Shown piece by piece: positions 7,659 through 59,108 of a stretch of DNA of 64,000 bases. The position numbers were made by a program, and so were the translations under genes. The notes under the pieces are model-generated. The model ran no database searches. It saw only the letters and a program-made list of their open reading frames with translations, and was not told the DNA's origin. Source of the DNA: Streptomyces sp. WZ-12 (GTDB lineage: Bacteria > Actinomycetota > Actinomycetes > Streptomycetales > Streptomycetaceae). The number at the start of each line of letters is the position of its first letter. The stretch's first letter is position 1. The stretch spans positions 6,993,001 to 7,057,000 of the forward strand of contig NZ_CP118574.1 of assembly GCF_028898845.1 (NCBI RefSeq), in the 5' to 3' direction.

Positions 7659-7906
7659 GTTTTCCCCACCCCACAACGGGAGGTGACGGGCCGGAGGGGG
7701 CGGTGTGTCAGACGTAAAGCGAAGCAGTCTGGCACACCGCCCCCGGAGGCCCGTCACCGCACCCAACAGCCCCGCGCAGCGGACCGGCCCGCCGCAGGCG
7801 CCACGGCGGGACAGTCAACAACGTGGGGCGCAGCCGGCCGCAGGCCCACGGTGGGAAAGCCAACAACGTGGGGCGCAGCCCGCCGCAGGCCCACGGTGGG
7901 AAAAAG
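7659..7906 (+). repeat. Dispersed hairpin element, copy A
   Basis: Core is a 77-bp imperfect palindrome at 7682-7758: left arm 7682-7713, loop GTAAAGCGAAGCA at 7714-7726, right arm 7727-7758. The arms pair along their length except one T-G wobble and a symmetric GGA/GGA internal loop. To the right follow the linker CCCCGCGCAGCGGACCGG and 45-bp tandem units beginning at 7803, 7848 and 7893, each with GGYGGGA. The ends, TTTTCCCCACC (7660-7670) and GGTGGGAAAAAG (7895-7906), are imperfect terminal inverted repeats. It lies between convergent genes. The same core recurs at 33923, 34210, 40414 and 58951. Confidence 0.85.
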
Positions 7907-7918
7907 AGCCCAGCGCAG

Positions 7919-8590
7919 CTACTGCGCCCCCGGCCGCACCAATCCACTCTCATACGCATAGACCGCCGCCTGCACCCGGTCCCGCAGCCCCAGCTTCGTC
8001 AGCACATGACCGACGTGCGTCTTGACCGTCGTCTCGCTGACGAACAGGTCCGCGGCGATCTCGGCGTTGGACAGCCCGCGGGCCACCAGCTTCAGCACCT
8101 CCACCTCCCGCTCGGTGAGCGTGTGGAGGGTGTCCGGCACCGGCTCCTCGCCGGACGGCAGATGCCCGGCGTACTTGTCCAGCAGCCGGCGGGTGATGCT
8201 CGGCGCGAGCATCGCCTCGCCCGCCGCCACCACCCGGATCGCCTGCACCAGTTCGCCCGCCGGGGCGTCCTTGAGCAGGAAGCCGCTGGCCCCGGCGCGC
8301 AGCGCCTCGACGACGTACTCATCGAGGTCGAAGGTGGTCAGCACCAGCACCTTCGCCGGGCCGTCCTTCTCCGGGCCGGTGATCTGCCGGGTGGCCTCGA
8401 CGCCGTCCATCCGCGGCATCCGGATGTCCATCAGCACCACATCGGGCTGCAGCGCCCGCACTTGCTCCAGCGCCTGGAGCCCGTCGCCCGCCTCACCGAC
8501 GACCGCCAGATCCTGCTCGGCCTCCAGGATCATCCGGAAACCCGTACGCAGCAGGGGCTGGTCGTCGACCAGCAGGACGCGGATGGCCAC
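7919..8590 (-). CDS. NarL/LuxR-type response regulator, orphan
   Basis: 223 residues. The receiver domain spans residues 1-120 with acidic pair D9-D10, phospho-acceptor D55 in LMDIRMP, the Thr in VLVLTTFD and a Lys in LLKDAPAG. A LuxR-type helix-turn-helix lies near the C-terminus (LTEREVEVLKLVARGLSNAEIA). This class normally pairs with a histidine kinase encoded next door, but here the neighbours are a repeat element and a nuclease gene, so its kinase is elsewhere. The domain assignment is certain; the signal and target genes are unknown. Confidence 0.93.
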   Translation of the reverse strand: MAIRVLLVDDQPLLRTGFRMILEAEQDLAVVGEAGDGLQALEQVRALQPDVVLMDIRMPRMDGVEATRQITGPEKDGPAKVLVLTTFDLDEYVVEALRAGASGFLLKDAPAGELVQAIRVVAAGEAMLAPSITRRLLDKYAGHLPSGEEPVPDTLHTLTEREVEVLKLVARGLSNAEIAADLFVSETTVKTHVGHVLTKLGLRDRVQAAVYAYESGLVRPGAQ

Positions 8591-8625
8591 AAGCTCTCCT
8601 TCGACGGGGCGGGATCATTCGATAC

Positions 8626-9666
8626 CTATTCGACCCGCTCCATTCTGCCCTGCGGGCCGCCCGCGCCGTCCGCCGGGCGCACCGGCGACGACGGCACCTC
8701 CAGGGGAGCGGCCTCCGGGCCGCCGTCCAAACCGGCCGCCGCCACCCGCACCGGCAACGGATACACCGGGGGAGTGCCGCCGAACTCCGGGCAGTGCGCC
8801 TGGTGATCGCACCAGCCGCACAGCTTCGTCGGCCGCGGCCGCCAGTCGCCGGACTCCGTCGCCTGCCGGATCGCCTCCCACAGCGCCAGCAACTTCCGCT
8901 CCACGCCCCGCAGATCGCGCTCGTCCGGGTCGTACGTCAGCACGTCGCCGCTGCCCAGATAGACCAGTTGGAGCCGGCGCGGCACCACGCCCCGCAGCCG
9001 CCAGACCACCAGCGCGTAGAACTTCATCTGGAACAGCGCGCCCTCGGCGTACTGCGGCCTGGGCGCCTTCCCGGTCTTGTAGTCGACCAGGCGCACCTCG
9101 CCCGTCGGCGCCACGTCGACCCGGTCGATGAACCCCCGCAGCCGCAGCCCGGAATCGAGCACCGTCTCCACGAACAGCTCGCGGTCGGCCGGCTCCAGCC
9201 GCGTCGGGTCCTCCAGCGTGAACCAGCGATCCACCAGCTCGGCGGCCTGGGTCAGCCACTGCCCCAACTGCGCGCCGTCCGCGTCCTGGTCGAACAGCTC
9301 GGCCAGCTCCGGGCGCTTGGCCAGCAGCTTCTCCCACTCGACCGGCACCAGCGCGCGGGCCCCGTCCGCCGTGCGCTCCGCCGCGGGGGCGTCGAAGAGC
9401 CGCTCCAGCACCGCGTGCACGACCGTGCCGCGGGTGGCCGCCGGGCTCGGCTTCTCCGGCAGCTTGTCGATCACGCGGAAGCGGTAGAGCAGCGGGCACT
9501 GCATGAAGTCGCTCGCCCGCGACGGCGACAGCGCCTCCGGCGGCCGCGCCCCACCCCGCGCTGGCACCGCGGCCCCCGCCGGCGCCGCACCCTGCGCCGG
9601 CACCGCGGCCGCCCCCGGCCCGTCACCCGGTGCGTCCGCCTCGGTCTTCTCCGTGCTCCATCCCAT
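8626..9666 (-). CDS. RecB-like PD-(D/E)XK nuclease family protein
   Basis: 346 residues. After a low-complexity Ala/Pro-rich N-terminus (to about residue 45) comes LSPSRASDFMQCPLLYRFR, the N-terminal Fe-S cysteine region of AddB/RecB-like nucleases. Then come GTVVHAVLE, the nuclease core VDYKTGKAPRPQY with the catalytic Asp and Lys, and a C-terminal cysteine set (LCGWCDHQAHCPEF). Four cysteines spaced this way normally hold a 4Fe-4S cluster. ATG at 9666 is chosen because a PafBC-type promoter has its -10 TAGGGT only 7 bp upstream, predicting a leaderless mRNA. A longer open frame extends upstream but would include the promoter. Probable DNA repair role. Confidence 0.88.
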   Translation of the reverse strand: MGWSTEKTEADAPGDGPGAAAVPAQGAAPAGAAVPARGGARPPEALSPSRASDFMQCPLLYRFRVIDKLPEKPSPAATRGTVVHAVLERLFDAPAAERTADGARALVPVEWEKLLAKRPELAELFDQDADGAQLGQWLTQAAELVDRWFTLEDPTRLEPADRELFVETVLDSGLRLRGFIDRVDVAPTGEVRLVDYKTGKAPRPQYAEGALFQMKFYALVVWRLRGVVPRRLQLVYLGSGDVLTYDPDERDLRGVERKLLALWEAIRQATESGDWRPRPTKLCGWCDHQAHCPEFGGTPPVYPLPVRVAAAGLDGGPEAAPLEVPSSPVRPADGAGGPQGRMERVE

Positions 9667-9673
9667 GCCCAGA

Positions 9674-9696
9674 ACCCTACGGCCCACCACTGACAA
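9674..9696 (-). promoter_or_regulatory. PafBC-type (RecA-NDp) DNA damage promoter of the RecB-like nuclease
   Basis: Read on the minus strand: TTGTCAGTG, eight bases, then TAGGGT. This fits the actinobacterial damage-promoter pattern TTGTCRGTG-N8-TAGNNT at every specified position and at exact spacing. The -10 ends 7 bp before the ATG at 9666. PafB and PafC, which activate such promoters, are encoded at 25321-27293. Confidence 0.8.
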
Positions 9697-9864
9697 TCGC
9701 CGTCGGATCACAAACGGTGAGGTCACCACCGCCGCTCGCGCCCCGCAACGGATCACGGCCGGAAGCTCCGCATACCATCGACGTCGAGCACCTTTGCCCT
9801 GCATGATCGAGTTGTCAGGCAGTGCAGTGCAGGTGTGGAAGCCGTATTTCAACGAGGGGACGCC

Positions 9865-11166
9865 GTGGACGAGAGCGGGAAGCCGCAGGACCCCCAGGAG
9901 TCCGGGCAGGACCGGCCGCCCCAGCCGCCTGAGAGCGCGCCCGAGGGCTCCCAGGCGCCGTCGCGCCCACCGGGTCCGGCGCGGGGCACCGACCGGGAGA
10001 GCGCCACCCCCAAGGCCCCCGGCGGCGGCATCCTCATGGGGCGGCCCTTCGGCGTGCCGGTCTACGTGGCGCCCAGCTGGTTCCTGGTCGCCGCCCTCAT
10101 CACCTGGGTGTTCGGCGGCCAGTTGGACCGGGTCCTCCCGGAGTTGGGCGCCGCCCGCTACCTGGTCTCACTCTTCTTCGCGGTCGCCTTCTACGCCTCC
10201 GTGCTCGTCCACGAACTCGCCCACACCGTCGCGGCCCTCCGCTTCAAGCTGCCCGTCCGCCGGATCCAGCTCCAGTTCTTCGGCGGCGTCTCCGAGATAG
10301 AGAAGGAATCCGAGACCCCAGGCCGGGAGTTCGTGCTGGCCTTCGTCGGCCCGCTCCTCTCCCTCGTCCTCGCCGGCGTCTTCTACGTGGGCATGCGCCT
10401 GGTCGCACCGGACACCGTCCCGGGCGTGCTGCTCGCCGGCCTGATGATCTCCAACCTCATCGTCGCGGTCTTCAACCTGCTGCCCGGCCTGCCCCTGGAC
10501 GGCGGCCGGATGCTGCGCGCCGTCGTCTGGAAGATCACCGGCAGGCCGATGAGCGGCACCGTCGCCGCCGCCTGGGTCGGCCGCGCGCTCGCCGTCACCG
10601 TCCTCATCGGGCTGCCGCTGCTCACCCACACCGGCGCCCTCGGCCGGGCCCCCGAGGAGATCGGCGGCGCCGACTCGCTCACCGACGCGCTGCTCGCCGC
10701 CATCCTCGCCGCCATCATCTGGACCGGCGCCGGCAACAGCCTCCGCATGGCCCGGCTGCGCGAACGCCTCCCCGACCTCACCGCCCGTACGCTCACCCGG
10801 CGCGCCATCCCGATCGAGACCGACACCCCGCTCTCCGAGGCGCTGCGCCGAGCCAACGACGCCGGCGCCCGCGCCCTGGTCGTCGTCGACCGCCAGGGCT
10901 TCCCCACCGCCCTGGTCCGCGAGGCCGCCATCGTCGGCGTCCCCGAGCACCGTCGCCCCTGGGTCGCCGTCGGCAGCCTGGCCCAGGACCTCAAGGACGG
11001 CATGCGGGTCGGCGCCGAACTCGCCGGCGAGGACCTCCTGGACCACCTCCGCGCCACCCCCGCCACCGAGTACCTCGTCATCGAGCAGACCGGCGCGATC
11101 TACGGCGTCCTCTCCGCCGCCGACGTGGAACGCGCCTTCGTGGCCGCCATGGCGCGGCCTTCCTGA
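9865..11166 (+). CDS. M50 site-2-type membrane metalloprotease with CBS domains
   Basis: 433 residues. A cytosolic Pro-rich N-terminus is followed by membrane segments. The zinc motif HELAH lies in the membrane helix near residue 115 and the second zinc site NLLPGLPLDGG near residue 210, both diagnostic of S2P/SpoIVFB-type intramembrane proteases. Residues ~310-430 look like a pair of CBS domains (RAIPIETDTPLSEALRRAND and VLSAADVERAF). GTG at 9865 is chosen because AGGGGA lies directly upstream; another GTG at 9835 has none. It is divergent from the nuclease and heads the block leading to trmI. The substrate is unknown; S2P enzymes usually cleave anti-sigma factors or signal-peptide remnants. 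Confidence 0.9.
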   Translation: MDESGKPQDPQESGQDRPPQPPESAPEGSQAPSRPPGPARGTDRESATPKAPGGGILMGRPFGVPVYVAPSWFLVAALITWVFGGQLDRVLPELGAARYLVSLFFAVAFYASVLVHELAHTVAALRFKLPVRRIQLQFFGGVSEIEKESETPGREFVLAFVGPLLSLVLAGVFYVGMRLVAPDTVPGVLLAGLMISNLIVAVFNLLPGLPLDGGRMLRAVVWKITGRPMSGTVAAAWVGRALAVTVLIGLPLLTHTGALGRAPEEIGGADSLTDALLAAILAAIIWTGAGNSLRMARLRERLPDLTARTLTRRAIPIETDTPLSEALRRANDAGARALVVVDRQGFPTALVREAAIVGVPEHRRPWVAVGSLAQDLKDGMRVGAELAGEDLLDHLRATPATEYLVIEQTGAIYGVLSAADVERAFVAAMARPS

Positions 11167-11281
11167 AGAGCCGCCACGGCCGGGGCCGAGCCCGTCGGTG
11201 CAGGCCCCCGGCCCCCGTAGCGGGCGCCCCTCCCCACCGTCCCTGGTACGGAGGACGGCCAACGGCCGGTAGGCTGGTCAC

Positions 11282-12277: not shown

Positions 12278-12305
12278 CGCCAGGGCCCAACCACCCGAAC
12301 CGACC

Positions 12306-12360
12306 GGCGCCGCCGACGAGTTCCCCCGCGCGGGAACCGTCGGCGGCGCCGTTTCGTTCT
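12306..12360 (+). terminator. Rho-independent terminator after trmI
   Basis: GGCGCCGCCGAC...GTTCCC (12306-12325) pairs with GGGAAC...GTCGGCGGCGCC (12332-12350) with one bulged base and a 6-base loop. It is followed by GTTTCGTTCT. It closes the trmI transcript before the gene at 12492. Confidence 0.85.
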
Positions 12361-12491
12361 CCTCGTGGACCGGTGCAAAGGACGCGTGCGGAAAGTGCGT
12401 GAACTCCGCCCCGCCGGTTCCTTGCCGCCCCCGCCTGTGGAACGATGCTGGGCACTCCCACCGCCACAGCACCTCACAGGAGTTACCGCAC

Positions 12492-13079: not shown

Positions 13080-13172
13080 TCCGTCGCGCGACGTGTGTGC
13101 GTCCGGGGCTCGTCTACGCCCCGCCTACGCCGCGTCCGCGAAGCGTCTACGCCCTGTCAGCAACCCTGTTGC

Positions 13173-13463
13173 TCAGGCATCCGGTCCGTAGACCTCGACG
13201 CCGTCCGAGACCCGGCGCACGTGAATGCAGTCGCCGGGGCACTCGTTGGCCGAGTCCCGCACGTCGTTGAGGAGCGGCAGCGGCACGGGCGTTGTGGCGC
13301 CCTGCTCCTGCAACAGCTCGTCGGCGGGGCTCTTCACATAGGCCAGGCCGTCGATGTCGAGCTCGAAGACCTCGGGCGCGTATTGCGCGCAGATCCCGTC
13401 CCCGGTGCACAGATCCTGGTCGATCCAGACTTCGAGCTCCGGTGCTTCGTCCTGCGCGGTCAT
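13173..13463 (-). CDS. Ferredoxin, 3Fe-4S/4Fe-4S single-cluster type
   Basis: 96 residues, acidic. The cluster ligands are in LCTGDGICAQYAPEVF (N-terminal pair) and NECPGDCIHV (C-terminal), typical of Streptomyces small ferredoxins that feed cytochromes P450 or other oxygenases. The middle (PADELLQEQGATTPVPLP) is the variable loop. ATG at 13463 is preceded on the minus strand by GGCAGGCGAG. It stands alone between the gene ending at 13079 and arc, divergent from arc. No P450 is in the window, so its redox partner is unknown. Confidence 0.92.
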   Translation of the reverse strand: MTAQDEAPELEVWIDQDLCTGDGICAQYAPEVFELDIDGLAYVKSPADELLQEQGATTPVPLPLLNDVRDSANECPGDCIHVRRVSDGVEVYGPDA

Positions 13464-32458: not shown

Positions 32459-33571
32459 TTACGACGCCGCGCGTTCCCCGGCCCGCTCCGCGTCGCGCTT
32501 GGCGACCCCCTCGCGGACGAGCGGGATGACGTGTCGGCCGAAGTCGATGGCGTCGTCGAGCAGGTCGTAGCCGCGGGCGGAGAGGATGGTCACACCCAGG
32601 TCGTAGTAGTCCAGCAGCGCCTGGGCGACGGTCTCCGGCGTGCCGACCAGGGCGGTGGAGTTGCCGGCGCCGCCGGTCTCCGCGGCGGTCGGCGTCCACA
32701 GTGCCCGGTCGTGCCGTTCGCCCTGCGCCGCCACCTCCAACAGCCGCTGGGAACCGGCGTTCTGGGGATGCGTCAGCGGGTGCCGGCGGCTGAGGACGCC
32801 GCCCGCCTTGCGGGCCTTGATCCGGGCCAGGGTGTGGTGCGCCTTCTCCCAGGCCAGTTCCTCGGTGGGCGCGATGATCGGGCGGAAGGCCACCTGGATG
32901 CGGGGCACATCGGTGCGACCGGCGGCCGCCGCGGCCGCCTTGACCGAGGCGATCTGCTCGGCGGTCTGCGCCAGCGGCTCGCCCCACAGGCAGTAGATGT
33001 CCGCCTCCGCACCGCCCGCCGCGTACGCCGCGGGTGACGAACCGCCGAACGACACCTGCGGGTGCGGCTGTTGGAGCGGGAAGGTGTCGGAGACGAAGTC
33101 CTGGAAGCGGTAGTGGGTGCCCTCGTGGTCGAAGGGGTCGTGGCTGGTCCAGGCCCGTTTCACGATCCGGATGTACTCGCGGGTGCGGGCGTAGCGCTCG
33201 TCCTTGGTGAGGGTGTCGCCCTCGCGGCGCTGCTCGTGGTCGTTGCCGCCGGTGATGAAGTGCACCGCGAGCCGGCCGTCGCTGATCCGGTCCAGGGTGG
33301 CGAAGGTCTTCGCGGCGAACGTCGGATAGGAGACGTTGGGGCGGTGCGCCACCAGCAGTTGCAGCCGCTCGGTGCGGGCCGCGACGTAGGCGGCGGCGGG
33401 GGAGGGATCGGGGGAGCCGGAGCCGTAGGCGAACAGGACCCGGTCCCAGTCGTACTCCTCGTGGGCGCGGGCGAGTTTGAGGGTGTACTCCTTGTCGAAG
33501 GAGGCGCCGGAGCGCGGGGTGACTTCGGAGCCGTCGTGGGTGGCGGCTATGCCGAGGAACTCGACAGGCAT
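32459..33571 (-). CDS. ssuD: LLM-class flavin-dependent monooxygenase, alkanesulfonate monooxygenase (SsuD)-like
   Basis: 370 residues. Bacterial luciferase-like barrel with MPVEFLGIAATHDGSEV at the start, VAHRPNVSYPTFAAKTFATLDRISDGRLAVHFITGG (FMN and sulfonate region), and FGGSSPAAYAAGG. These match SsuD-type enzymes that release sulfite from alkanesulfonates using FMNH2. ATG at 33571 is chosen as family start with GAGG upstream; ATGs at 33601 and 33619 have no ribosome site. The reductase SsuE and sulfonate ABC genes are not adjacent. A cysteine-ended leader peptide 87 bp upstream supports a sulfur-related role. Confidence 0.88.
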   Translation of the reverse strand: MPVEFLGIAATHDGSEVTPRSGASFDKEYTLKLARAHEEYDWDRVLFAYGSGSPDPSPAAAYVAARTERLQLLVAHRPNVSYPTFAAKTFATLDRISDGRLAVHFITGGNDHEQRREGDTLTKDERYARTREYIRIVKRAWTSHDPFDHEGTHYRFQDFVSDTFPLQQPHPQVSFGGSSPAAYAAGGAEADIYCLWGEPLAQTAEQIASVKAAAAAAGRTDVPRIQVAFRPIIAPTEELAWEKAHHTLARIKARKAGGVLSRRHPLTHPQNAGSQRLLEVAAQGERHDRALWTPTAAETGGAGNSTALVGTPETVAQALLDYYDLGVTILSARGYDLLDDAIDFGRHVIPLVREGVAKRDAERAGERAAS

Positions 33572-33658
33572 GGGTGCGGCCTCGTCTTCATCGTCGTTCA
33601 TGGGGAACGCGGAATGCACTGACGTGCGGGGTGCGCGAATGCGCGGGGCGCGGAGGCG

Positions 33659-33736
33659 TCAGTGGCAACAGGAGGCGGACCACACGCGACCGAAGTCGAT
33701 GTGGTCCCGGGTGACCAGCCGTTGCTGAGGTCGCAT
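33659..33736 (-). CDS. Cysteine-ended leader peptide upstream of the SsuD-like gene
   Basis: 25 residues beginning MRPQQR and ending LVTRDHIDFGRVWSASCCH. Streptomyces and mycobacterial leader peptides ahead of sulfur genes share an R-x-H-[IV]-D-[LF] segment and C-terminal cysteines, where ribosome stalling on Cys codons senses cysteine. A TTGACG -35 box lies at 33772-33767, with a weak -10 (TCCACT-like) just before the start, so translation would begin almost at the 5' end. It is followed by 87 bp containing short GC hairpins before ssuD. Confidence 0.65.
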   Translation of the reverse strand: MRPQQRLVTRDHIDFGRVWSASCCH

Positions 33737-33788
33737 GAGCTCAGTGGAACAGGCACGTGTGTCTGCCGTCAACCAATTCTTTTGCCTG

Positions 33789-34020
33789 CCCACGTTGTTG
33801 GCTTTCCCGCCGCGCGGGTTGCTGTTCTTAGCGCCTTGCGGCGCTGGCCTGTTGTCCGCTGCCGGTCCGCTGCGCGGGGCGGGGCGAGTTGTCTGGTCCG
33901 CTGCGCGGGGCTGTCGGGGTGCGGTGACGGGCCTCCGGGGCGGGCATGCCAGACTGCTTCGCTTTACGTCTGGCACACCCACCCCTCCGGCCCGTCCCCT
34001 CCCGTGGGTGGGTGGGAAAG
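33789..34020 (-). repeat. Dispersed hairpin element, copy B
   Basis: The 77-bp core at 33923-33999 has arms 33923-33954 and 33968-33999 and a loop that reads TGCTTCGCTTTAC on the plus strand, the complement of the other loops, so this copy is inverted. The linker with CCGCTGCGCGGGGC occurs twice (33868, 33898). The terminal module CCCACGTTGTTGGC...CCCGCC is at 33789-33811. It abuts the -35 box of the ssuD leader. It shares a 59-bp interior block, in inverse orientation, with copy C. Confidence 0.82.
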
Positions 34021-34186
34021 ACGGTGGGTGCCGTGTCCTGTCGGTGGGTCAACTCGGGCCGTTGGGTTAGGTGGTGACTGCCAGAGGACGAGTACGCATG
34101 AGACTGAGCGGCGACCGTAAGAGTACGGGTGGCCCAAGCAACCGGGCGGTGACCGTCAGGGGACCACAGTGGCCAGCCCCCGACTA

Positions 34187-34445
34187 GAGAAATCCACCCC
34201 TCAACGGGAGGGGACGGGCCGGAGGGGGTGGTATGCCAGACGTAAAGCGAAGCAGTCTGGCATACCACCCCCGGAGGCCCGTCACCGCAGCCAACAGCCC
34301 CGCGCAGCGGACCGGCCCCGCGCAGCGGACAACTCAACCCACCCCGCGCAGCGGACCGGCCGGCCGCAGGCGCCACGGTGGGAAAGCCAGCGCCGCAAGG
34401 CGCTAAGAGCAGCAACCCGCGCGGCGGGAAAGCTAACCACGTAGG
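34187..34445 (+). repeat. Dispersed hairpin element, copy C
   Basis: The core lies at 34210-34286: arms 34210-34241 and 34255-34286, loop GTAAAGCGAAGCA at 34242-34254. The linker unit CCCCGCGCAGCGG occurs three times. The terminal module GGCGGGAAAGCTAACCACG ends at ~34440. Block 34387-34445 matches the reverse complement of 33789-33847 in copy B with four differences in 59 bp. The 166 bp between copies B and C (34021-34186) show no gene or motif I can name. Confidence 0.82.
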
Positions 34446-34464
34446 AAGACAGCCAAGCGCAGCG

Positions 34465-35313
34465 TCACGCCGCAGCGGGCTCCTGTTCGGCCTCGACCTG
34501 GGCGTTCCAGTCGCGCTTGCCGGCCTGCCAGCCGTCCTCGTCGTGGCCGGCGCGCCAGTAGCCGGAGATCGACAGCGCCTCGCGCGGGACGGCGTGTTCG
34601 ACGCGGAGCAGTCGGCGCAGCTCCTTGACGAAGCCCGCCTCGCCGTGCACGAACGCCTGGAGCCGGCCCGCGGGGAAGGTCAAGTCCCTTACGGCCCGGA
34701 CGAGTTGGTGGCCGACCGGGGCGGCGTCGCGGTACACCCAGGTGATCTCCGTGCCGGGCGGGGTGGCGAGCTCCTGCCGCTCCTCGGGGGTGGCGACCTC
34801 GATGAAGGCGTGCGCCACCGCGCCCGCCGGCATTCGGCTCAGCGCGGCGGCGATGGCCGGCAGGGCGCTCTCGTCGCCGGCGAGCAGGTGCCAGTCGGCG
34901 GTCGGGTCGGGGGCATAGGCGCCGCCCGGGCCGAGGAACATGATCTCGTCGCCCGGCCGGGCGGTCGCCGCCCACGGGCCGGCCAGCCCGCTGTCGCCGT
35001 GCACGACGAAGTCCACGGTCAGCTCGCGGGCCTGCGGGTCCCAGGCGCGCACGGTGTAGGTGCGCGTGCGGGGCCACTGGGCGCGCGGCAGCTCGGCCCG
35101 GATGTGCGCCATGTCGAACGGTTCGGGGTAGTTGACGTCCGGCAGCGGGAAGACCAACTTGACGTAGTGGTCGCTGAATTCGCCGGCGTCGAACGCCGCC
35201 AGGCCCTCGCCGCCCAGGACCACGCGCACCATGTGCGGGGTGAGCCGCTCGGTGCGCCGCACACGGGCGCGGTGCAGTGTGGGCGTGCTGCGGGCCGGTC
35301 GCTGAGCTGCCAC
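34465..35313 (-). CDS. Siderophore-interacting protein (ferric-siderophore reductase)
   Basis: 282 residues. N-terminal FAD-binding barrel with RTYTVRAWD and DFVVHGDSGLAGPWA, then GDEIMFLGPGGAY and the NAD(P)H-binding SIP domain with LLAGDESALPAIA and the C-terminal GYWRAGHDED. It reduces Fe(III) bound to siderophores to release iron. GTG at 35313 follows AGGGGAGAG. An iron box lies 59 bp upstream, so it should be repressed by a DmdR/IdeR regulator when iron is plentiful. No siderophore synthesis genes are nearby. Confidence 0.93.
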   Translation of the reverse strand: MAAQRPARSTPTLHRARVRRTERLTPHMVRVVLGGEGLAAFDAGEFSDHYVKLVFPLPDVNYPEPFDMAHIRAELPRAQWPRTRTYTVRAWDPQARELTVDFVVHGDSGLAGPWAATARPGDEIMFLGPGGAYAPDPTADWHLLAGDESALPAIAAALSRMPAGAVAHAFIEVATPEERQELATPPGTEITWVYRDAAPVGHQLVRAVRDLTFPAGRLQAFVHGEAGFVKELRRLLRVEHAVPREALSISGYWRAGHDEDGWQAGKRDWNAQVEAEQEPAAA

Positions 35314-36536: not shown

Positions 36537-37679
36537 GTGTCCAGGCTGCAAGCCGAGCACTTGTACAAGGTGTTCGGCAGACGACCCGAGGACGGGGTGC
36601 GCAGACTCCAGGCCGGCGCCGGCCGGGAGGAGCTGCGGGCCGATGGCACCACCGCCGCGGTGATCGACGCCTCCATCGAGGTGGACGAGGGCCAGATCTT
36701 CGTCGTCATGGGTCTGTCCGGATCCGGCAAGTCCACGCTGCTGCGCATGCTCAACGGCCTGCTGGAGCCGACCGCGGGCAGCGTCCGCTTCGACGGCCAG
36801 GACCTCACCTCGCTCACGCCCAAGGAACTGCGCGCCGTCCGCTCCCGGAAGATATCCATGGTCTTCCAGCACTTCGCGCTCTTCCCGCACCGCAGCGTGC
36901 TGGAGAACGCCGCCTACGGCCTGGAGGTCCAGGGCGTGGCGCGCGCCGAGCGGGAGCGGCGCGCCACCGAGGCGCTGGAGCTCGCCGGGCTCAAGGGCTG
37001 GGAGAAGTCCTGGCCGGACGAGCTCTCCGGCGGCATGCAGCAGCGCGTCGGCCTGGCCCGCGCGCTGGCCACCGACGCCGATCTGCTGCTGATGGACGAG
37101 TCCTTCAGCGCGCTCGACCCGCTGATCCGCCGCGATATGCAGGACCAGCTTCTGGAGCTGCAGAAGACGCTGAAGAAGACCATCGTCTTCATCACCCACG
37201 ACCTCAACGAGGCGATGCGGCTCGGCGACCAGATCGCCGTGATGCGCGACGGCCGGATCGTCCAGACCGGCAGCGCCGAGGACATCCTGGTGCGGCCCGC
37301 CAACGACTACGTCGCCTCCTTCATCCAGGACGTCGACCGCAGCCGGGTGTTGACCGCCGGCGCGGTGATGACGGACGTCGACTCCGTGCTGGGCGACGCC
37401 GCCCCGGGCGGGACCGGGTTGGCCACCGCCGCCGCGTTCCGGGCCGCCGCGCCCGCCACCGTCGGCGTGGACACCCCGCTCGCCGACCTGTTCACCGCCT
37501 GCTCGACCAGCGCGGTACCGGTCGCGGTCACCGACGAGCGCGGCGAACTGGCCGGCGCGGTCACCGCGGAGCGGCTGCTCGCCGTGCTGGGCGAGCCGAG
37601 CCTCCCGGACGCGGCGCCGACCGTGCCCGCACCGGCCGCCGCCGACAAGACCGAGGGCACGGTGACCGCCGATGCCTAG
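36537..37679 (+). CDS. Glycine betaine/proline-type ABC transporter ATP-binding protein
   Basis: 380 residues. Walker A GLSGSGKST near residue 60, signature LSGGMQQRVGLARAL, Walker B DLLLMDESFSALDP, then a C-terminal region with a CBS-like segment (from about residue 270), typical of OpuAA/ProV where it senses ionic strength. GTG at 36537 is chosen because AGAGAGG precedes it; the frame is open further upstream without a ribosome site. It overlaps the permease gene by 8 bp, so the two are translationally coupled. Role: import of osmoprotectants. Confidence 0.93.
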   Translation: MSRLQAEHLYKVFGRRPEDGVRRLQAGAGREELRADGTTAAVIDASIEVDEGQIFVVMGLSGSGKSTLLRMLNGLLEPTAGSVRFDGQDLTSLTPKELRAVRSRKISMVFQHFALFPHRSVLENAAYGLEVQGVARAERERRATEALELAGLKGWEKSWPDELSGGMQQRVGLARALATDADLLLMDESFSALDPLIRRDMQDQLLELQKTLKKTIVFITHDLNEAMRLGDQIAVMRDGRIVQTGSAEDILVRPANDYVASFIQDVDRSRVLTAGAVMTDVDSVLGDAAPGGTGLATAAAFRAAAPATVGVDTPLADLFTACSTSAVPVAVTDERGELAGAVTAERLLAVLGEPSLPDAAPTVPAPAAADKTEGTVTADA

Positions 37680-40275
37680 GATCCAGATCGGTAGCTGGGC
37701 CAACGACGCCGTCAACTGGCTGCGCGACAACCTCGACTGGCTGTTCCAGCTCATCACCACGGTGCTGAACGGCCTCTACAACGCGATCCACACCGTCCTC
37801 GCGGCGCCTCAACCGCTGGTCCTCGCCGGCATCCTGGCGGTGCTCGCCTGGTGGCTGCGCGGACTGCCGGCCGCGGTCCTCACCTTCCTCGGCTTCGCGC
37901 TGATCGACTCCATCCAACAGTGGGGCCCGACCGTCGAGTCGCTCTCGCTGGTCCTGGTGGCCTGCCTGATCACCGTCGTGGTCGCGGTGCCGTTGGGCAT
38001 CTGGGCGGCCCGCAGCCGGGTCGTCGGCGGCATCCTGCGCCCGGTGCTGGACCTGATGCAGACCATGCCGGCGATGGTCTACCTCATCCCCGGCATCCTC
38101 TTCTTCGGCCTGGGCGTCGTCCCCGGCATCGTCGCCACCATCGTCTTCTCCATGCCGCCCGCGGTGCGGATGACCGAGCTCGGCATCCGGCAGGTCGACG
38201 GGGAACTGGTCGAGGCGGCCGAGGCGTTCGGCACCCACCCGCGGCGCACCCTGCTGCGGGTCCAGCTCCCGCTCGCGCTGCCGACGATCATGGCCGGTAT
38301 CAACCAGGTCATCATGCTCGCGCTGTCCATGGTCGTGATCGCCGGCATGGTCGGCGGCGGCGGCCTCGGCGCGTCCGTCTACAACGCGATCAGCTCGGTC
38401 AACGTCGCCCTGGGCGCCGAGGCCGGCCTCGCGGTGGTCATCCTCGCCATGTACCTGGACCGGATGACCGGCGCGCTCAACCAGCGGGTCTCCCCGCTCG
38501 GCCGGCGGGCGCTGGCCAAGGCGCAGGCGGCGCTGGGCGGTTGGAAGTTCCTCCAGTGGCGGCCCGCGACCTCGGTCGCCATGGTCGGCGTCGTCGTGCT
38601 GGCGCTGCTGGCCGGCGGGATGAGCTACCTCAACAACAACGGCTCCGGCGCGTCCGGCGGCGGCAACGGCAAGCCGATCACCCTCGGCTACGTCAACTGG
38701 GACGAGGGCAAGGCCACCACGTACCTCTGGAAGGAGATCCTGGAGGAGCGCGGCTACAAGCCCAAGGTGCAGGCGCTGGAGGCCGGTCCGCTCTTCGCCG
38801 GCCAGGCCCGCGGCGACATCGACGTGCAGACCAACGCCTGGCTGCCGGTCACCCACGCCGAGTACTGGAAGAAGTACCAGGACCAGCTTGAGGACCTCGG
38901 CACCTGGTACGACAAGACCTCGCTGGAGATCGCGGTCCCGTCCTACGTCAAGGACGTCAAGACCCTCGACGACCTCAAGGGCAGGAGCGCCGAGTTCGGC
39001 GGCAAGATCACCGGCATCGAGCCGGGCGCCGGCGAGATGAAGATCCTCAAGGACAAGGTCCTGGGCGCCTACGGGCTGGGCGGCGAGTACAAGGTGCAGG
39101 AGTCCAGCACCGCCTCCATGCTCAGCGAGCTCGACCGGGCCATCCACAACAAGAAGCCGATCGCGGTCACCCTGTGGTCCCCGCACTGGGCGTACGACAA
39201 GTACCAGCTCACCAAGCTCAAGGACCCCAAGGGCGCCTTCGGCTCCGGCGACGGCCTGCACATGCTGGGCCGCAAGGGCTTCGCCAAGGACATGCCCGAG
39301 GTCGCGAAGTGGATGAAGAACTTCCACCTCGACGAGAAGCAGCTCACCAGCCTGGAGAACGCCATCAAGTCGGCCGGCGAGGGCCACGAGCAGGACGGCG
39401 TCCGGAGCTGGCTGAAGCAGAACCCCGGTCTCGTCGAGAAGATCGCGCCGTCCGCGCACGCCACCTACGCCAAGGGCGCGGACGCCGGCAAGTCCCCCAA
39501 CATCGGCTACCCGGCGTGGGACGAGGGCATCGCCACCGCCTACCTGTGGAAGAACGTCCTGGAGAAGCGCGGCTACCAGCCCAACCTGCGCAACCTCGAC
39601 GTCGGACCGATGTGGACCGGCCTGTCCACCGGCCAGATCGACGTGGAGACCGACGCCTGGCTGCCGGTCGCCCAGAAACAGTACTGGGACAAGTACAAGG
39701 ACGATCTGGTCGACGTCGGCGCCTGGTACGACAAGACCTCGCTGGAGATCGCGGTCCCGTCGTACGTCAAGGACGTCAAGTCCATGGACGATCTGCGGGC
39801 GCACAAGGACGAGTTCAAGGGCAAGATCATCGGCATCGAGCCGGGCACCGGTGAGATGCAGCGCCTGAAGAGCACCGTGCTGCCCGCCTACGGCCTGTCG
39901 GACTTCGAGGTCACCTCGGCCGGCACCAGCGCGATGCTCGCCGAACTGGACCGGGCCTACCGCAACCACGAGCCGGTCGCGGTCGTGCTGTGGTCGCCGC
40001 ACTGGGCCTACAACAAGTACCAGCTCACCAAGTTGGCCGACCCCAAGGGCACGTGGGGCGCCAACAACCAGATCAAGACGCTCGGCAACAAGAGCTTCCC
40101 GAAGAAGTTCCCGGAGTTCTACGGCTGGCTGAAGAACTGGAAGATGACGCCCGACGAACTCGGCAGCCTGGAGAAGGACATCCAGGACGCGGGGAAGGGG
40201 AACGAGGACAAGGGCGTCCAGAAGTGGATCGACGGGCATCCGGGGATCGTTGATGAGATGGCGCCCGTGAAGTAG
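37672..40275 (+). CDS. Betaine-type ABC permease fused to two substrate-binding domains
   Basis: 867 residues. Residues ~20-300 are the permease, with the EAA loop EAAEAFGTHPRRTLLRVQLPLALP, and a further membrane segment near 310-330. Then two OpuAC-type binding domains in series: the first from GKPITLGYVNWDEGKATTYLW (~345-600), the second from SPNIGYPAWDEGIATAYLW (~608-867). Both keep the tryptophans that cage quaternary amines (NWDEG/AWDEG, WSPHWAY). Most Gram-positive OpuABC fusions have one binding domain. A 59-bp tract is almost identical between the two domains, 819 bp apart, suggesting duplication with gene conversion. Confidence 0.92.
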   Translation: MPRIQIGSWANDAVNWLRDNLDWLFQLITTVLNGLYNAIHTVLAAPQPLVLAGILAVLAWWLRGLPAAVLTFLGFALIDSIQQWGPTVESLSLVLVACLITVVVAVPLGIWAARSRVVGGILRPVLDLMQTMPAMVYLIPGILFFGLGVVPGIVATIVFSMPPAVRMTELGIRQVDGELVEAAEAFGTHPRRTLLRVQLPLALPTIMAGINQVIMLALSMVVIAGMVGGGGLGASVYNAISSVNVALGAEAGLAVVILAMYLDRMTGALNQRVSPLGRRALAKAQAALGGWKFLQWRPATSVAMVGVVVLALLAGGMSYLNNNGSGASGGGNGKPITLGYVNWDEGKATTYLWKEILEERGYKPKVQALEAGPLFAGQARGDIDVQTNAWLPVTHAEYWKKYQDQLEDLGTWYDKTSLEIAVPSYVKDVKTLDDLKGRSAEFGGKITGIEPGAGEMKILKDKVLGAYGLGGEYKVQESSTASMLSELDRAIHNKKPIAVTLWSPHWAYDKYQLTKLKDPKGAFGSGDGLHMLGRKGFAKDMPEVAKWMKNFHLDEKQLTSLENAIKSAGEGHEQDGVRSWLKQNPGLVEKIAPSAHATYAKGADAGKSPNIGYPAWDEGIATAYLWKNVLEKRGYQPNLRNLDVGPMWTGLSTGQIDVETDAWLPVAQKQYWDKYKDDLVDVGAWYDKTSLEIAVPSYVKDVKSMDDLRAHKDEFKGKIIGIEPGTGEMQRLKSTVLPAYGLSDFEVTSAGTSAMLAELDRAYRNHEPVAVVLWSPHWAYNKYQLTKLADPKGTWGANNQIKTLGNKSFPKKFPEFYGWLKNWKMTPDELGSLEKDIQDAGKGNEDKGVQKWIDGHPGIVDEMAPVK

Positions 40276-40288
40276 GCGCTGGATTCTT

Positions 40289-40512
40289 CCCACGTTGTCG
40301 GCTTTCCCGCCGTGAGCCCGCGGCTGGCCGCGCCCCACGTTGTCGGCTTTCCCGCCGTGGGGGTTGCTGTTGGCGCCTGCGGCGCGGGACCGCTGCGCGG
40401 GGCTGTTGGGTGTGGGGACGGGCCTCCGGGGCCGGTGTGCAGGACTGCTTCGCTCTACGTCCTGCACACCGGCCCCTCCGGCCCGTCCCCTCCCGTTTGT
40501 TGGGTGGGATGT
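40289..40512 (-). repeat. Dispersed hairpin element, copy D
   Basis: The core lies at 40414-40490, with arms 40414-40445 and 40459-40490 and the loop TGCTTCGCTCTAC (inverted, one base different from the other copies). Near the stem tip it has GCAGGAC/GTCCTGC where copies A-C have CCAGAC/GTCTGG. The terminal module CCCACGTTGTCGGC...CCCGCC is present twice, at 40289-40311 and 40334-40356, exactly 45 bp apart, the same period as in copy A. It fills the gap between two plus-strand genes; no gene lies in 40276-40582. Confidence 0.83.
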
Positions 40513-53505: not shown

Positions 53506-53523
53506 GCTTCCATGATCAATATC

Positions 53524-53551: not shown

Positions 53552-53582
53552 GCCGTGCTTCCCCCTTGACCACGGAGGACAC

Positions 53583-54923
<1,341 letters not shown>

Positions 54924-54957
54924 GCGCACCGCCGGACCACGGGCGAGGCCCGCGCCG

Positions 54958-56214: not shown

Positions 56215-56429
56215 GGCCCGCAGCCTGCCAGACCGCGCTACCCCTGGTAAGGGGACGAACCGCGCCGGAAGTGTCGCGGGAGCGCGCGGGGGTTGGAGCG
56301 GCGGCCCGGCCAGCCCTTAAAGTGGCTCGACACCGCAACCAGCAGGTCAGCGGCGTGTTGTCCGGATACGAACCACCCTGCCCCGATTGCTTGTCGGGTC
56401 CGGGGCACACCGTGCGAGGGGGAGCGCTG

Positions 56430-57740
56430 GTGAGCGCCGACGCCGATTACGCCGATGCGCCGCGCATCCCACCCATACCCCCGCGCCCGCCGCACCGCCC
56501 CGCCGGGCCCGCCCCCGACGAGGACCCCAAGACCACCGTCCTGCGCCCGGTCCCCGCCGAGCCCCCCCGCCCGCCCGCCGGCCGCTCCCCGCCGAGACCA
56601 CCCCGGCCCCCAAGCCGACCCCGTCGCCCGCCGCCCCCGCGCCCGAGCCGAACGCGGCCCCACCCCGGCCCCCACCGCGCCCCCCCGGTCGACGACCCCG
56701 CCGCCGCCGGCCAGGCCACCCCCCCCCACCCCCGCACGGAGCCGCCCGCCGCCCCGCCGCCGCCCGCGCCGGCGCCCCCCCGCTCGTTCCGCGACACCGC
56801 CGCCTTCCACCTCGCCAACAGCGCCGCCCTGTGGGACGACGCCCGCGCGACCGCGCCGCGCACCCCGCGCCACCCCCCCGCCCCCGAGCCCCCACCCGCC
56901 CCCGACCGGCCGTCAACTCCCGCCCACCCCACCGGAGTCGAGGCGGAACCGCGCCGTCCACTGGCCGACCGCCTGCCCGGCAACCGGGTCGTGGCCGCGG
57001 CCGTCTCCCTGGTCCTCGGCATCGGCCTGATCGCCGGTGCCGCGGCCGGCAGTTGGCTCACCGACACCCCCGCCAAGGGCACTCCGACGCCCGAGGCCGT
57101 CTTCGCCAGGGGCCGGGACGCCTGGCGCAACACCCCCGTCGACGCCCTCTTCCCGCGCACCGTCGAGGGCCTGGCCGCCGGCCCCGGCGGCGCCGACCGC
57201 ACCTGGATCCGGATCGCGGTCGCCCCCGACACCGGCTGCACCCCCGCCGCCGAGGGCCCGCTCGCCAAGGAACTCGCCCCGGCCGGCTGCGCCCGCCTGC
57301 TCCGCGCCACCTACGTCGACGCCACCCGCACCGGCGTCATCACCGTCGGCGCCCAGACCACCCAGGCCGACCGGTCCAAAATGATGGACCTCAACGCCCG
57401 CTTCAGCACCAACGACCTGGCCACCCGCAGCGCCCTGATGCCGCCGCCGCTGGCCGCCAAGGGCACCGCCGCCGAGGACTTCGGTCCCGCCCAGCGCGCC
57501 AGTTGGACGATCCGGGTCCTCACCGACGTCCCGGTCGTGGTCTACGCGGTCTCCGGCTTCGCCGACGGCCGCGAGGTCGCCGACCCGCAGCCCGCCGACG
57601 CCGCCGTCCAACCCGGCACCGCCACCGCCCCCGCCGAGGCCGGCCTCGGCCACGACGCCAAGGGCCTCGCGGACAAGATCAGCACGACCTTCCGCACCGC
57701 GTCCGGCCTCCCCGCGCAGCCCACGGAGCAAGCCCCATGA
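56430..57740 (+). CDS. Proline-rich membrane protein, partner of mycosin-like protease
   Basis: 436 residues. GTG at 56430 is chosen because GAGGGGGAG lies just upstream. Residues ~10-170 are extremely Pro/Arg-rich and disordered; one membrane helix (~190-215, VVAAAVSLVLGIGLIAGAA) leads to an extracellular domain of about 220 residues with two cysteines (DTGCTP, PAGCAR). Between two C7 runs (~56561 and ~56681) third-position GC drops in this frame and is ideal in another, suggesting paired indels. Its stop overlaps the ATG of the protease gene (ATGA), so they act together. Function unknown. Confidence 0.75.
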   Translation: MSADADYADAPRIPPIPPRPPHRPAGPAPDEDPKTTVLRPVPAEPPRPPAGRSPPRPPRPPSRPRRPPPPRPSRTRPHPGPHRAPPVDDPAAAGQATPPHPRTEPPAAPPPPAPAPPRSFRDTAAFHLANSAALWDDARATAPRTPRHPPAPEPPPAPDRPSTPAHPTGVEAEPRRPLADRLPGNRVVAAAVSLVLGIGLIAGAAAGSWLTDTPAKGTPTPEAVFARGRDAWRNTPVDALFPRTVEGLAAGPGGADRTWIRIAVAPDTGCTPAAEGPLAKELAPAGCARLLRATYVDATRTGVITVGAQTTQADRSKMMDLNARFSTNDLATRSALMPPPLAAKGTAAEDFGPAQRASWTIRVLTDVPVVVYAVSGFADGREVADPQPADAAVQPGTATAPAEAGLGHDAKGLADKISTTFRTASGLPAQPTEQAP

Positions 57741-58906
57741 CCAAGCCCGCGTGGCGCACCGCGGCCGTCGCCCTGACCTCCGCCGCGCTGGCCGTCCTGC
57801 CGTCCCTGCCGGCCCGCGCCGACACCCTCCGCGCCCAGGAATGGGGCCTGGCGGCCATCCACGCCCAGGACGCCTGGGGGACCACCAAGGGCGCCGGCGT
57901 CACCGTCGCCGTCCTGGACACCGGCGTGGACGCCGACCACCCCGACCTCACGGGCCAGGTGCTGCCCCAGAAGGACCTCATCGGCTTCGGCGCCCGCCCC
58001 GGCGACGACACCTACGCCCAGCACGGCACCGGCATGGCCAGCGTCATCGCCGGCCACGGCCACGGTCCCGGCCGCTCCGACGGCGTCCTCGGCGTCGCCC
58101 CCGAGGCCAAGATCCTGCCCGTCCGCGTGATCCTGGAGGACCACGACCCCGAGCGCCGCCGCGCCCGCGACCAGAAGGCCGGCGCCCTCGCCGACGGCAT
58201 CCGCTGGGCCGCCGACCACGGCGCCGACGTGATCAACATGTCCCTCGGCGACGACAGCGAGACCGCCCACCCCGACTCCCGCGAGGACGCCGCCATCCAG
58301 TACGCCCTGGGCAAGGGCATCCCCGTCGTCGCCTCCGCCGGCAACGGCGGCCTCAAGGGCAACCACGTCTCCTACCCCGCGGCCTACCCCGGCGTCATCG
58401 CCGCCACCGCCGTCACCCATCTGGACGCCCGCGCGCCCTTCTCCACCCGCCACTGGTACGCCACGGTCAGCGCCCCCGGCTACGACATCCTCATGGCCGA
58501 CCACGGCACCGGCTACGTCTCCGGCTGGGGCACCAGCCCCGCGGCCGCCTTCGTCTCCGGGGCCGTCGCGCTGCTCCGCTCCGCGCACCGCGGTCTCAGC
58601 CCGAACCAGATCCGCGACCTGCTCACCGGCACCGCGCAGCACCGCCCCGAGGGCGGGCGGGACGACGAGTACGGCGCGGGGCTCGTCGATCCCGCCGCCG
58701 CGCTGACGGCCGCCGAGCGGCTCGCCCCAACTCCGCAGAAGCCGGCCCCCGTTGCCTATCCCCACCGGTACTTCGGCCCCGGCCCGGTCGCCGATCCCGG
58801 CGATGACACCCCCGTCAACTGGATCCCGTGGGCCCTAGGCGCCACCGGCGTCGGGCTCGTAGCAGTAGCGCTCTTCCTCTGGCGCCGATCCGCCGCGCTC
58901 GACTGA
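57737..58906 (+). CDS. Mycosin-like subtilase, membrane-anchored S8 protease
   Basis: 389 residues. Signal peptide (to PARA), catalytic Asp in VAVLDTGVDADHPDL, His in QHGTGMASVIAG, Asn in ASAGNGG and Ser in GWGTSPAAAFVSG. C-terminal transmembrane helix (IPWALGATGVGLVAVALFLW) followed by RR, as in MycP proteases of type VII secretion. No ESX genes (EccB-E, EsxA) are in the window, so it may act with the upstream membrane protein instead. ATG at 57737 overlaps the upstream stop. The length is typical. Confidence 0.92.
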   Translation: MTKPAWRTAAVALTSAALAVLPSLPARADTLRAQEWGLAAIHAQDAWGTTKGAGVTVAVLDTGVDADHPDLTGQVLPQKDLIGFGARPGDDTYAQHGTGMASVIAGHGHGPGRSDGVLGVAPEAKILPVRVILEDHDPERRRARDQKAGALADGIRWAADHGADVINMSLGDDSETAHPDSREDAAIQYALGKGIPVVASAGNGGLKGNHVSYPAAYPGVIAATAVTHLDARAPFSTRHWYATVSAPGYDILMADHGTGYVSGWGTSPAAAFVSGAVALLRSAHRGLSPNQIRDLLTGTAQHRPEGGRDDEYGAGLVDPAAALTAAERLAPTPQKPAPVAYPHRYFGPGPVADPGDDTPVNWIPWALGATGVGLVAVALFLWRRSAALD

Positions 58907-58927
58907 GCTCCCCGCCCCCACCCACCT

Positions 58928-59108
58928 GTTTTTCCTACCCCCCAACGGGAGGTGACGGGCCGGAGGGGTGGGTGTGCAGGACGTAAAGCGAAGCAGTCCT
59001 GCACACCCACCCCGGAGGCCCGTCACCGCACCCAACAGCCCCGCGCAGCGGCACCGCGCCGCAGGCGCAAAGACAGCACCCCATGGCGGGAAAGCCAACA
59101 ACGTGGGG
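58928..59108 (+). repeat. Dispersed hairpin element, copy E
   Basis: The core lies at 58951-59027: arms 58951-58982 and 58996-59027, loop GTAAAGCGAAGCA at 58983-58995. Apart from the constant GGA/GGA internal loop the arms pair perfectly. The 5' flank GTTTTTCCTACC, the linker CCCCGCGCAGCGG and a single terminal module GGCGGGAAAGCCAACAACGT follow. It is the shortest copy and lies between mycosin and sseB; the sseB promoter begins ~28 bp beyond it. Confidence 0.85.

What the first reader, a model, noticed from the sequence alone, without database searches (positions are those of the whole stretch)
7682..59027. Five-copy dispersed element with an exact 32-13-32 hairpin core
The same 77-bp palindrome occurs at 7682-7758, 33923-33999, 34210-34286, 40414-40490 and 58951-59027. 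In all five the arms are 32 nt and the loop 13 nt (GTAAAGCGAAGCA; one copy has one change). The arms vary between copies but mostly vary together: tips are CAGAC/GTCTG or AGGAC/GTCCT, and middles change on both sides. A GGA/GGA internal loop is constant. Conserved loop plus co-varying stem indicates selection on structure, either as RNA or as a protein target in DNA, not just copying. All copies are intergenic. Options: a mobile MITE-like element, a REP-like element moved by a TnpA(REP)-type enzyme, a bidirectional terminator, or a processed RNA. I do not recognise the family.
Basis: partly seen in the sequence, partly recalled or inferred. Interest (0 to 1): 0.8.

Follow-up and report, generated by a model that had tools for sequence, protein, structure and literature searches.

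The report
Mosaic hairpin element replacing gene terminators
The five hairpins are cores of a mosaic DNA repeat, for which no name was found, that occupies about 40 gene ends in this Streptomyces chromosome, mostly where an ordinary transcription stop signal would be expected, and that may do that job.

Summary
In detail: all five 77-bp palindromes are at the stated places. They are cores of a larger mosaic: 72 hairpins at 43 sites in this genome, 29 of them divergent hairpin pairs around a body with 31-bp tandem repeats, with outer runs of small-hairpin modules. Stems co-vary; the 13-nt loop is nearly invariant. GGA/GGA holds in the window but not genome-wide. Sites favour convergent genes (45 of 99; background 32 of 272). 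Where a gene end faces the element, modules reach to a median 8 bp from the stop codon, and a native terminator-like hairpin remains at 5 of 39 flanks, against 20 of 21 element-free convergent junctions. At 30 of 48 facing flanks an outer module reads as a T-tailed stem. Many sites are shared between species. No Rfam match, no Y1 transposase, and no text match for the loop in the open-licence library. Best reading: a BOX/SPRITE-like interspersed repeat that took over termination. Termination was not measured; the mobiliser is unknown.

The parts
7682..7758 (+). 77-nt hairpin, single copy, loop GTAAAGCGAAGCA
7650..7681 (+). remnant of the body's R end (CCACCGACCGTTTTCCCCACCCCACAACGGGA)
   Evidence: compared by eye
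7759..7904 (+). outer modules: mini-hairpin CCGCGCAGCGG and 45-bp units with GGCGGGAAAGCCAACAACGTGGG-like sequence, ending about 14 bp before the gene at 7919-8590 (-); no T-tailed module here by the pattern
33783..33922 (-). outer modules of the left half of the pair
33800..33830 (+). terminator-like module read towards higher coordinates: stem CCCGCCGCGCGGG (33806-33818) then TTGCTGTTCTTA; the nearest gene on this side, 32459-33619 (-), points away
33923..33999 (-). 77-nt hairpin, left half of the divergent pair
34000..34209 (.). body of the pair: R end, 31-bp-type units, L end (TAGAGAAATCCACCCC)
34210..34286 (+). 77-nt hairpin, right half of the divergent pair
34287..34463 (+). outer modules of the right half, ending at the 3' end of the gene at 34465-35262 (-); holds a T-tailed module (6 T of 12)
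40286..40413 (-). outer modules of the single copy, ending about 10 bp from the 3' end of the gene at 37672-40275 (+); holds a module with 5 T of 12
40414..40490 (-). 77-nt hairpin, single copy, loop GTAGAGCGAAGCA
58951..59027 (+). 77-nt hairpin, single copy, top covariance-model score in the genome (102 bits)
59028..59109 (+). outer modules of the single copy, upstream of an SseB-domain gene; junction shared with other element-bearing species

Best explanation
A family of mosaic interspersed repeats in part of the genus Streptomyces. A full copy is: outer modules - hairpin - body with a variable number of 31-bp repeats - inverted hairpin - outer modules. Copies arrived at gene ends, mostly between convergent genes, and there took the place of the native bidirectional terminator. 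Transcripts entering from either neighbour meet small GC hairpins, in this genome often followed by a T-rich tail, and then the 32-bp-stem hairpin, which stops transcription or protects the 3' end. Shown: architecture, co-variation, loop conservation, position at gene ends, absence of a native terminator-like hairpin at most occupied facing flanks, sharing of junctions between species. Inferred: that termination really occurs there, and that spread is by an unknown mobiliser or by recombination among copies.
For: Convergent junctions 45 of 99 against background 32 of 272 (Fisher p 2e-11); divergent 6 of 99 against 85 of 272. At 39 flanks with a gene 3' end facing the element the unique sequence left before the stop codon is median 8 bp (quartiles 1, 8, 18), and 5 of 39 keep a hairpin of -12 kcal/mol or better, against 20 of 21 element-free convergent junctions of G000 loci (p 2e-10). 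At site 7682, of 29 relatives' loci 27 hold both flanking genes; all 27 have a 60-196 bp gap with a strong hairpin, and none of the 29 loci has the loop motif. At site 6177031, 13 of 29 relatives' loci hold both genes: 7 have gaps of 6-49 bp, 1 of 111 bp, 5 of 545-1018 bp, where this genome has 637 bp. 30 of 48 facing flanks carry a module that reads, from the gene, as a GC stem plus at least 5 T in 12 nt, against 1.8% of random 12-mers. Co-variation. Term-seq in S. clavuligerus found more strongly structured 3' ends without than with a U-rich tract, 353 and 182 (PMC8269248, passages), so a bare GC hairpin can mark a 3' end in this genus. 10 of 12 sites of G294 and 8 of 12 of G387 lie at junctions that G064 also occupies.
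Against: No transcript data. Enrichment at convergent genes is also what tolerance of a neutral or selfish insert gives. The T-tailed module is as common where the neighbour points away (14 of 24) and by my G000-derived pattern is rare in G064 (3 of 34 facing flanks), 2 of 11 in G294 and 4 of 16 in G387; the pattern was written after seeing the G000 sequences. The big hairpin has no U-tract on either side. 5 of 39 flanks keep a native hairpin. At 6177031 several relatives have gaps too short for a terminator, so replacement is not general. With a median of 8 bp left a hairpin could hardly fit, so its absence shows displacement, not function.
Confidence: 0.57

Rival explanations
1. A purely selfish, non-autonomous mobile repeat (MITE/BOX-like) that survives where insertion harms least, at convergent 3' ends; the hairpins serve its own movement and any termination is incidental.
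For: Relatives' loci without the loop motif: 29 at each of three sites; nearest relative of a hairpin lies in the same species for 144 of 197 (shuffled mean 28.5, maximum 51); convergent bias is also reported for pneumococcal BOX, RUP, SPRITE and IS, read there as tolerance (PMC3049150, passages).
Against: Junctions are shared between species whose flanking proteins are 75.7-98.3% identical, which suggests long retention; no copy with cargo between the hairpins seen; inward T-tailed modules and loss of native hairpins suggest use by the host.
Confidence: 0.21
2. A REPIN-like inverted doublet moved by a RAYT/TnpA(REP)-type HUH transposase acting on single-stranded DNA.
For: Inverted doublets are the main form (29 of 43 sites). 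The two hairpins of a pair are inverted copies (99-nt arms, 90% complementary), and the whole pair in the window folds, as RNA, into one long hairpin across the body (-274.5 kcal/mol, z -16). Compensatory changes are described for REPINs (PMC3116915, passages).
Against: No PF01797 match in the genome, while controls ring in 5 of 14; each half is itself a 77-nt hairpin with a 13-nt loop; outer modules have no counterpart in the passages read.
Confidence: 0.06
3. A DNA-structure site: the loop holds GCGAAGC (recalled: unusually stable DNA mini-hairpin) and the outer modules hold GCA triloops like Streptomyces telomere palindromes, so a protein binds cruciform or single-stranded DNA for replication, segregation or recombination.
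For: Loop identical in 64 of 72 G000 hairpins and 49 of 50, 14 of 15, 17 of 18 in three other genomes; GCA loops closed by sheared G-A pairs are described for telomeres, with Tap binding sequences in those palindromes (PMC4513846, passages); the outer G.A positions of the internal loop persist while its centre is G, C or T.
Against: The 43 sites lie in 1.26-7.40 Mb of a 9.17-Mb contig, not at its ends; strong preference for gene ends; seen in a minority of the genus.
Confidence: 0.08
4. A processed or divergently transcribed small RNA family read outward from the body, the hairpin being its functional part.
For: In G000 the loop-plus strand, which reads outward, carries 68 G.T against 1 A.C cell, in both chromosomal orientations and both halves of the chromosome (split at 4.6 Mb, my assumption).
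Against: The asymmetry rests on few inherited changes (9 against 1 column/type) and is weak elsewhere: 4 G.T against 2 A.C inner cells in three other genomes, 60 against 20 in named species; no sigma-70-type promoter match in 33600-34500.
Confidence: 0.08

Closest known systems
BOX elements of Streptococcus pneumoniae (PMC3049150, passages read)
   Same: Interspersed, intergenic, modular: fixed end modules around an internal module that is absent, single or repeated; strong predicted folding; over-represented between convergent genes; mobiliser unproven.
   Different: Here two inverted copies of one long hairpin with a near-invariant loop, and outer modules running to the stop codons; other genus, GC-rich. 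Sequences were not compared.
SPRITE, pneumococcal terminator-like repeat (PMC3049150, passages read)
   Same: Terminator-like stem, close to CDS 3' ends, strongest in convergent gaps, suggested by its authors to be co-opted as a terminator.
   Different: SPRITE is one 18-bp duplex with a U-rich tract; here a 32-bp stem without U-tract plus separate small T-tailed modules and an internal tandem array.
REPIN / RAYT system (PMC3116915, passages read)
   Same: Inverted doublets as the main form, compensatory changes, and a pair that can fold as one long hairpin.
   Different: No Y1 transposase match in the genome; size, own 13-nt loop in each half and outer modules differ.
Ype, Efa and Bor stem-loop repeats (PMC1590033, passages read)
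   Same: Repeated stem-loops near coding regions or CDS 3' ends, discussed as acting on mRNA stability.
   Different: Other genera; no mosaic pair architecture in the passages read. Sequences were not compared.
Streptomyces telomere palindromes (PMC4513846, passages read)
   Same: Small hairpins with GCA loops.
   Different: Internal and dispersed, none of the 43 sites near the contig ends; only a loop resemblance.

Membership tests
BOX-type modular repeat | fixed end modules around a variable number of internal tandem units | tested here: met
   body 140-438 bp in 27 aligned pairs; Tandem Repeats Finder gives period 31, 8.7 copies in the longest
BOX-type modular repeat | sequence homology to boxA/B/C | not tested
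   no comparison of sequences made
Intrinsic terminator | GC hairpin followed by U-rich tract, read from the gene | tested here: inconclusive
   outer module at 30 of 48 facing flanks in G000, but 3 of 34 in G064, 2 of 11 in G294, 4 of 16 in G387
Intrinsic terminator | the 77-nt hairpin itself followed by a U-rich tract | tested here: not met
   flanks of the copies show none; the scan of 33600-34500 finds only the outer module
Intrinsic terminator | transcript 3' ends at the site | not testable with these tools
   no transcript data held
REP/REPIN | inverted doublet as the main unit, able to fold as one hairpin | tested here: met
   55 -+ doublets and 0 +- in four complete genomes; fold of the window pair
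REP/REPIN | RAYT (Y1 transposase) in the genome | tested here: not met
   0 matches to PF01797, controls ring in 5 of 14
MITE | terminal inverted repeats with target-site duplication | not tested
   element ends vary; target duplications were not looked for
Known RNA family | match to an Rfam model | tested here: not met
   no gathering-level match to the element; in 33600-34600 below that level only microRNA models far under their cut-offs
Streptomyces telomere | location at chromosome ends | tested here: not met
   43 sites within 1.26-7.40 of 9.17 Mb

The most novel reading that the evidence does not exclude
A dispersed set of terminators that evolves in concert: the near-invariant loop is read by one trans-acting factor (protein or RNA), so that dozens of gene ends share a common, possibly regulated, 3'-end signal, and copies at old junctions are continually rewritten from other copies in the same genome while pairing is kept.
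Probability: 0.15. Interest if true: 0.85.

Novelty: new variant of a known kind. Interest (0 to 1): 0.56.

Why it matters
If right, about 40 gene ends in one chromosome have been taken over by one repeat family, a clear case of repeats becoming part of a genome's terminator set, in a genus where terminators have been little studied. The loop and arms make a direct test possible: what reads the loop, and why do arms drift together within a genome but less so between genomes. The family also seems to break draft assemblies, and could offer strong insulators for Streptomyces engineering if termination is confirmed.

Tried and rejected
REP/TnpA(REP): no Y1 transposase match. Rfam: none. Phages: no match. 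Plasmids: one record, the 2.8-Mb linear p1 of Streptomyces sp. BHT-5-2, 7 places, without usable annotation. Cargo between hairpins: none; recognised -+ pairs in named loci are 89-203 bp apart. Literature: no paper of the open-licence library holds any of four 14-letter pieces of the loop region; the listings (top 20, 20, 7 and 15 rows) show no title or abstract start describing this family; papers outside that library were not searched. Absence around the middle of the chromosome, suggested, was dropped after the covariance model found diverged copies there. Strand asymmetry as proof of an RNA was downgraded.

Limits: gene calls come from a simple codon-position script of mine, not from an annotation. 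The own-genome searches scored 40 of 226 and 150 of 21,006 first-look candidates, so 72 hairpins is a lower bound. For the alignment, 199 hairpins were reduced to 70 by identity and by a pairing filter, and I gave 50 of the 70; its 95.2% paired is therefore inflated. One search repeats the count on the 34 distinct G000 77-mers without a pairing filter. One search also skipped copies with fewer than 15 inner pairs. The covariance model was trained on such loops. One search scored 2 and 12 candidates per genome, so their counts are lower bounds. Two weak G000 matches (4980992, E 7.8e-8; 8007747, E 2.1e-4) were left out of the 72; the second lies outside the 1.26-7.40 Mb span. In one search one pair (5865938) was aligned in the wrong orientation. 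Comparisons without paralogs or with fewer than three paralogs or other-junction copies (57 became 50) were dropped. In one search, 1 of 100 sites had no usable gene context, and its probability for the chromosome arms took the span from the data, so it is only indicative. Three of the 120 pattern stretches are from other genera (Lysobacter, Kocuria, an Acidothermaceae MAG) and hold no hairpin. Target-site duplications were not examined.
Full report
WHAT WAS CHECKED. They fold far beyond shuffles. In the window the internal loop is GGA/GGA in all five.

WHAT THE THING IS. A search of the window's own genome (9.55 Mb, 2 contigs; the window is C1:6993001-7057000) gave 105 matches to a 270-bp query, from which 61 hairpins were verified: 27 divergent pairs and 7 singles. 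A covariance model built from 50 hairpins added 11 diverged ones, making 72 hairpins at 43 sites: 29 pairs, 14 singles. All 43 sites are on the large contig, between 1.26 and 7.40 Mb of 9.17 Mb; a weak match at 8.0 Mb was left out. In four complete genomes every doublet is of the -+ kind, 55 of 55; one close +- arrangement was seen in S. niger, L090, and reads as two single copies.

ANATOMY. Pairs mostly have two unlike ends: one hairpin is preceded by ...AGAGAAATCCACCCCTCAACGGGA, the other by ...ACCGTTTTCACCCACCCCCAACGGGA. Between them is a largely homologous body of 140-438 bp with a 31-bp unit in varying number, 8.7 copies in the longest (GTCCTCTGACGGTCACCACTCAGGCTCACGC). Outside each hairpin come mini-hairpins with GCA loops (CCGCGCAGCGG, GCGCCGCAGGCGC) and a unit with GGCGGGAAAGCCAACAACGTGGG, which has 124 matches in the genome with up to 3 mismatches, against 5 for the reversed control; of those listed most lie at element sites and a few stand alone (by eye). 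One site (1743570-1743868, L035) has four such units with only the 3' arm of a hairpin left. The two hairpins of a pair are inverted copies, and the window pair folds, as RNA, into one long hairpin across the body rather than two separate ones; each half alone is a hairpin too.

STRUCTURE UNDER CONSTRAINT. On 50 distinct hairpins, chosen partly for pairing, 95.2% of paired cells are standard pairs (shuffled mean 77.3%), 21 of 29 pairs show double changes, and the covariation score is 0.443 (shuffled 0.113, 0 of 500 as high; slid versions 0.030-0.065). On the 34 distinct G000 77-mers, not chosen for pairing, 955 of 986 cells are paired (shuffled mean 862, maximum 882) and 14 of 29 pairs show double changes (shuffled mean 7.4, maximum 10). 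The loop is GTAAAGCGAAGCA in 64 of 72 G000 hairpins, 49 of 50 in G064, 14 of 15 in G294, 17 of 18 in G387. The internal loop of 59 G000 77-mers is GGA/GGA in 40, GGA/GCA in 14, GGA/GTA in 1; 4 pair there fully, with four different triplets. Co-variation may be kept by selection, but also by copying between well-paired copies or by palindrome-correcting repair; these were not separated. The excess of G.T over A.C mismatches on the outward strand is strong in G000 (68 against 1) but weak elsewhere, so it is only a hint that this strand is the one that folds.

WHERE IT SITS. In the four complete genomes 45 of 99 sites lie between convergent genes (background 32 of 272) and 6 of 99 between divergent genes (85 of 272). 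A partly overlapping set with named species gave 54 of 101 convergent, 7 divergent, 40 co-directional, against 59, 148 and 321 of 528. Where a gene's 3' end faces the element in G000, the modules run to a median of 8 bp from the stop codon; 5 of 39 such flanks keep a native terminator-like hairpin, while 20 of 21 element-free convergent junctions of G000 loci have one. At the 7682 site, between an SBP_bac_5 gene and a response regulator, 27 of 29 relatives' loci hold both genes, all 27 with a strong hairpin in a 60-196 bp gap, and none of the 29 has the loop motif; here the 308-bp gap is nearly all element. At 6177031, 13 of 29 relatives' loci hold both genes, with gaps of 6-49 bp in 7, 111 bp in 1 and 545-1018 bp in 5, while S. 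albospinus has an element there. At 58951 none of 29 relatives' loci has the loop motif, yet S. albireticuli and Streptomyces sp. Ru73 have an element between the same two genes.

A STOP SIGNAL AT EACH END. Read from the neighbouring gene inward, the outer module is CCCGCCGCGCGGG or a variant followed by TTGCTGTTCTTT or similar: 30 of 48 facing flanks have at least 5 T in the 12 nt after the stem, against 1.8% of random 12-mers. It is as common where the neighbour points away (14 of 24), so it belongs to the element. With the same pattern, written from G000, it is found in 3 of 34 facing flanks in G064, 2 of 11 in G294 and 4 of 16 in G387. In the window 3 of 5 copies have it. In S. clavuligerus 353 strongly structured 3' ends lack and 182 have a U-rich tract (PMC8269248, passages), so the large hairpin may also mark 3' ends.

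EVOLUTION. The family is limited: 19 of 392 genus genomes have a model match at E <= 1e-6, some of them weak, and named carriers include S. lydicus, S. albospinus, S. kronopolitis, S. niger, S. sioyaensis, S. celluloflavus and S. albireticuli. Sites are old: with both flanking genes matched, G294 shares 10 of its 12 sites and G387 8 of its 12 with G064; G000 shares 5, 4 and 2 of its 43 with G064, G294 and G387. Yet the hairpin's closest relative is in the same species for 144 of 197. Over 50 comparisons at shared junctions, identity to the same-junction copy in the other species averages 0.817, to the median other-junction copy there 0.802, and to the median copy of its own genome 0.858; the same-junction copy beats the other-junction median in 27 of 50. 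For the 25 that start from G000 the values are 0.822, 0.806 and 0.895, and 14 of 25. Among complete genomes 47 comparisons give 0.867, 0.819 and 0.835, and 36 of 47. So site-specific signal remains between closer species and is nearly lost in the first set, while copies within a genome stay alike. That fits either homogenisation among copies or repeated re-insertion at favoured junctions; the data do not decide.

MECHANISM. The most likely account is a BOX/SPRITE-like mosaic repeat that settled at gene ends and became the terminator there. The alternatives, a purely selfish insert, a REPIN, a DNA-structure site or a small RNA, are weighed in their own sections. Nothing here measures transcription.

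NOVELTY. No Rfam family; no paper of the open-licence library holds the loop pieces searched, and the listings show none that describes the family by title or abstract start. The general kind, interspersed stem-loop repeats at gene ends, is known (PMC3049150, PMC1590033, passages). The combination of near-invariant loop, inverted long hairpins, internal tandem array and terminator takeover looks new within that kind.

Noticed in passing
window 61346-61514: Rfam Scr1601 (RF02830) Streptomyces small RNA, 124 bits, above its gathering score.
   Followed up: no
window 34000-34209 and bodies of the pairs: 31-bp tandem unit with a core ACGGTCACC, about three helical turns apart, as if for a protein binding on one DNA face.
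   Followed up: partly
G000 C1:1743570-1743868 (L035): Truncated element: four outer units and only the 3' arm of the hairpin, apparently after loss of the other half.
   Followed up: partly
L240, L241, L242 (G000 6029614-6030797, 7379500-7379813, 6817723): A second subfamily in the same genome with different stems, body and outer units but the same loop, one copy with one loop change.
   Followed up: partly
window 59083-59110: The longest ORF of the SseB-domain gene (ATG at 59083) starts inside the outer module, so either the start lies downstream or the module supplies the first residues.
   Followed up: no
draft-genome loci such as L113, L126, L168: Contigs begin at the hairpin, so the family seems to break short-read assemblies.
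   Followed up: no
NZ_CP081497.1 (Streptomyces sp. BHT-5-2 p1, 2.8 Mb): A linear record filed as plasmid holds 7 places with the element.
   Followed up: no
L093, L109, L120, L186: One junction occupied in several species keeps same-junction similarity better than most in some comparisons, perhaps outside the homogenisation.
   Followed up: partly
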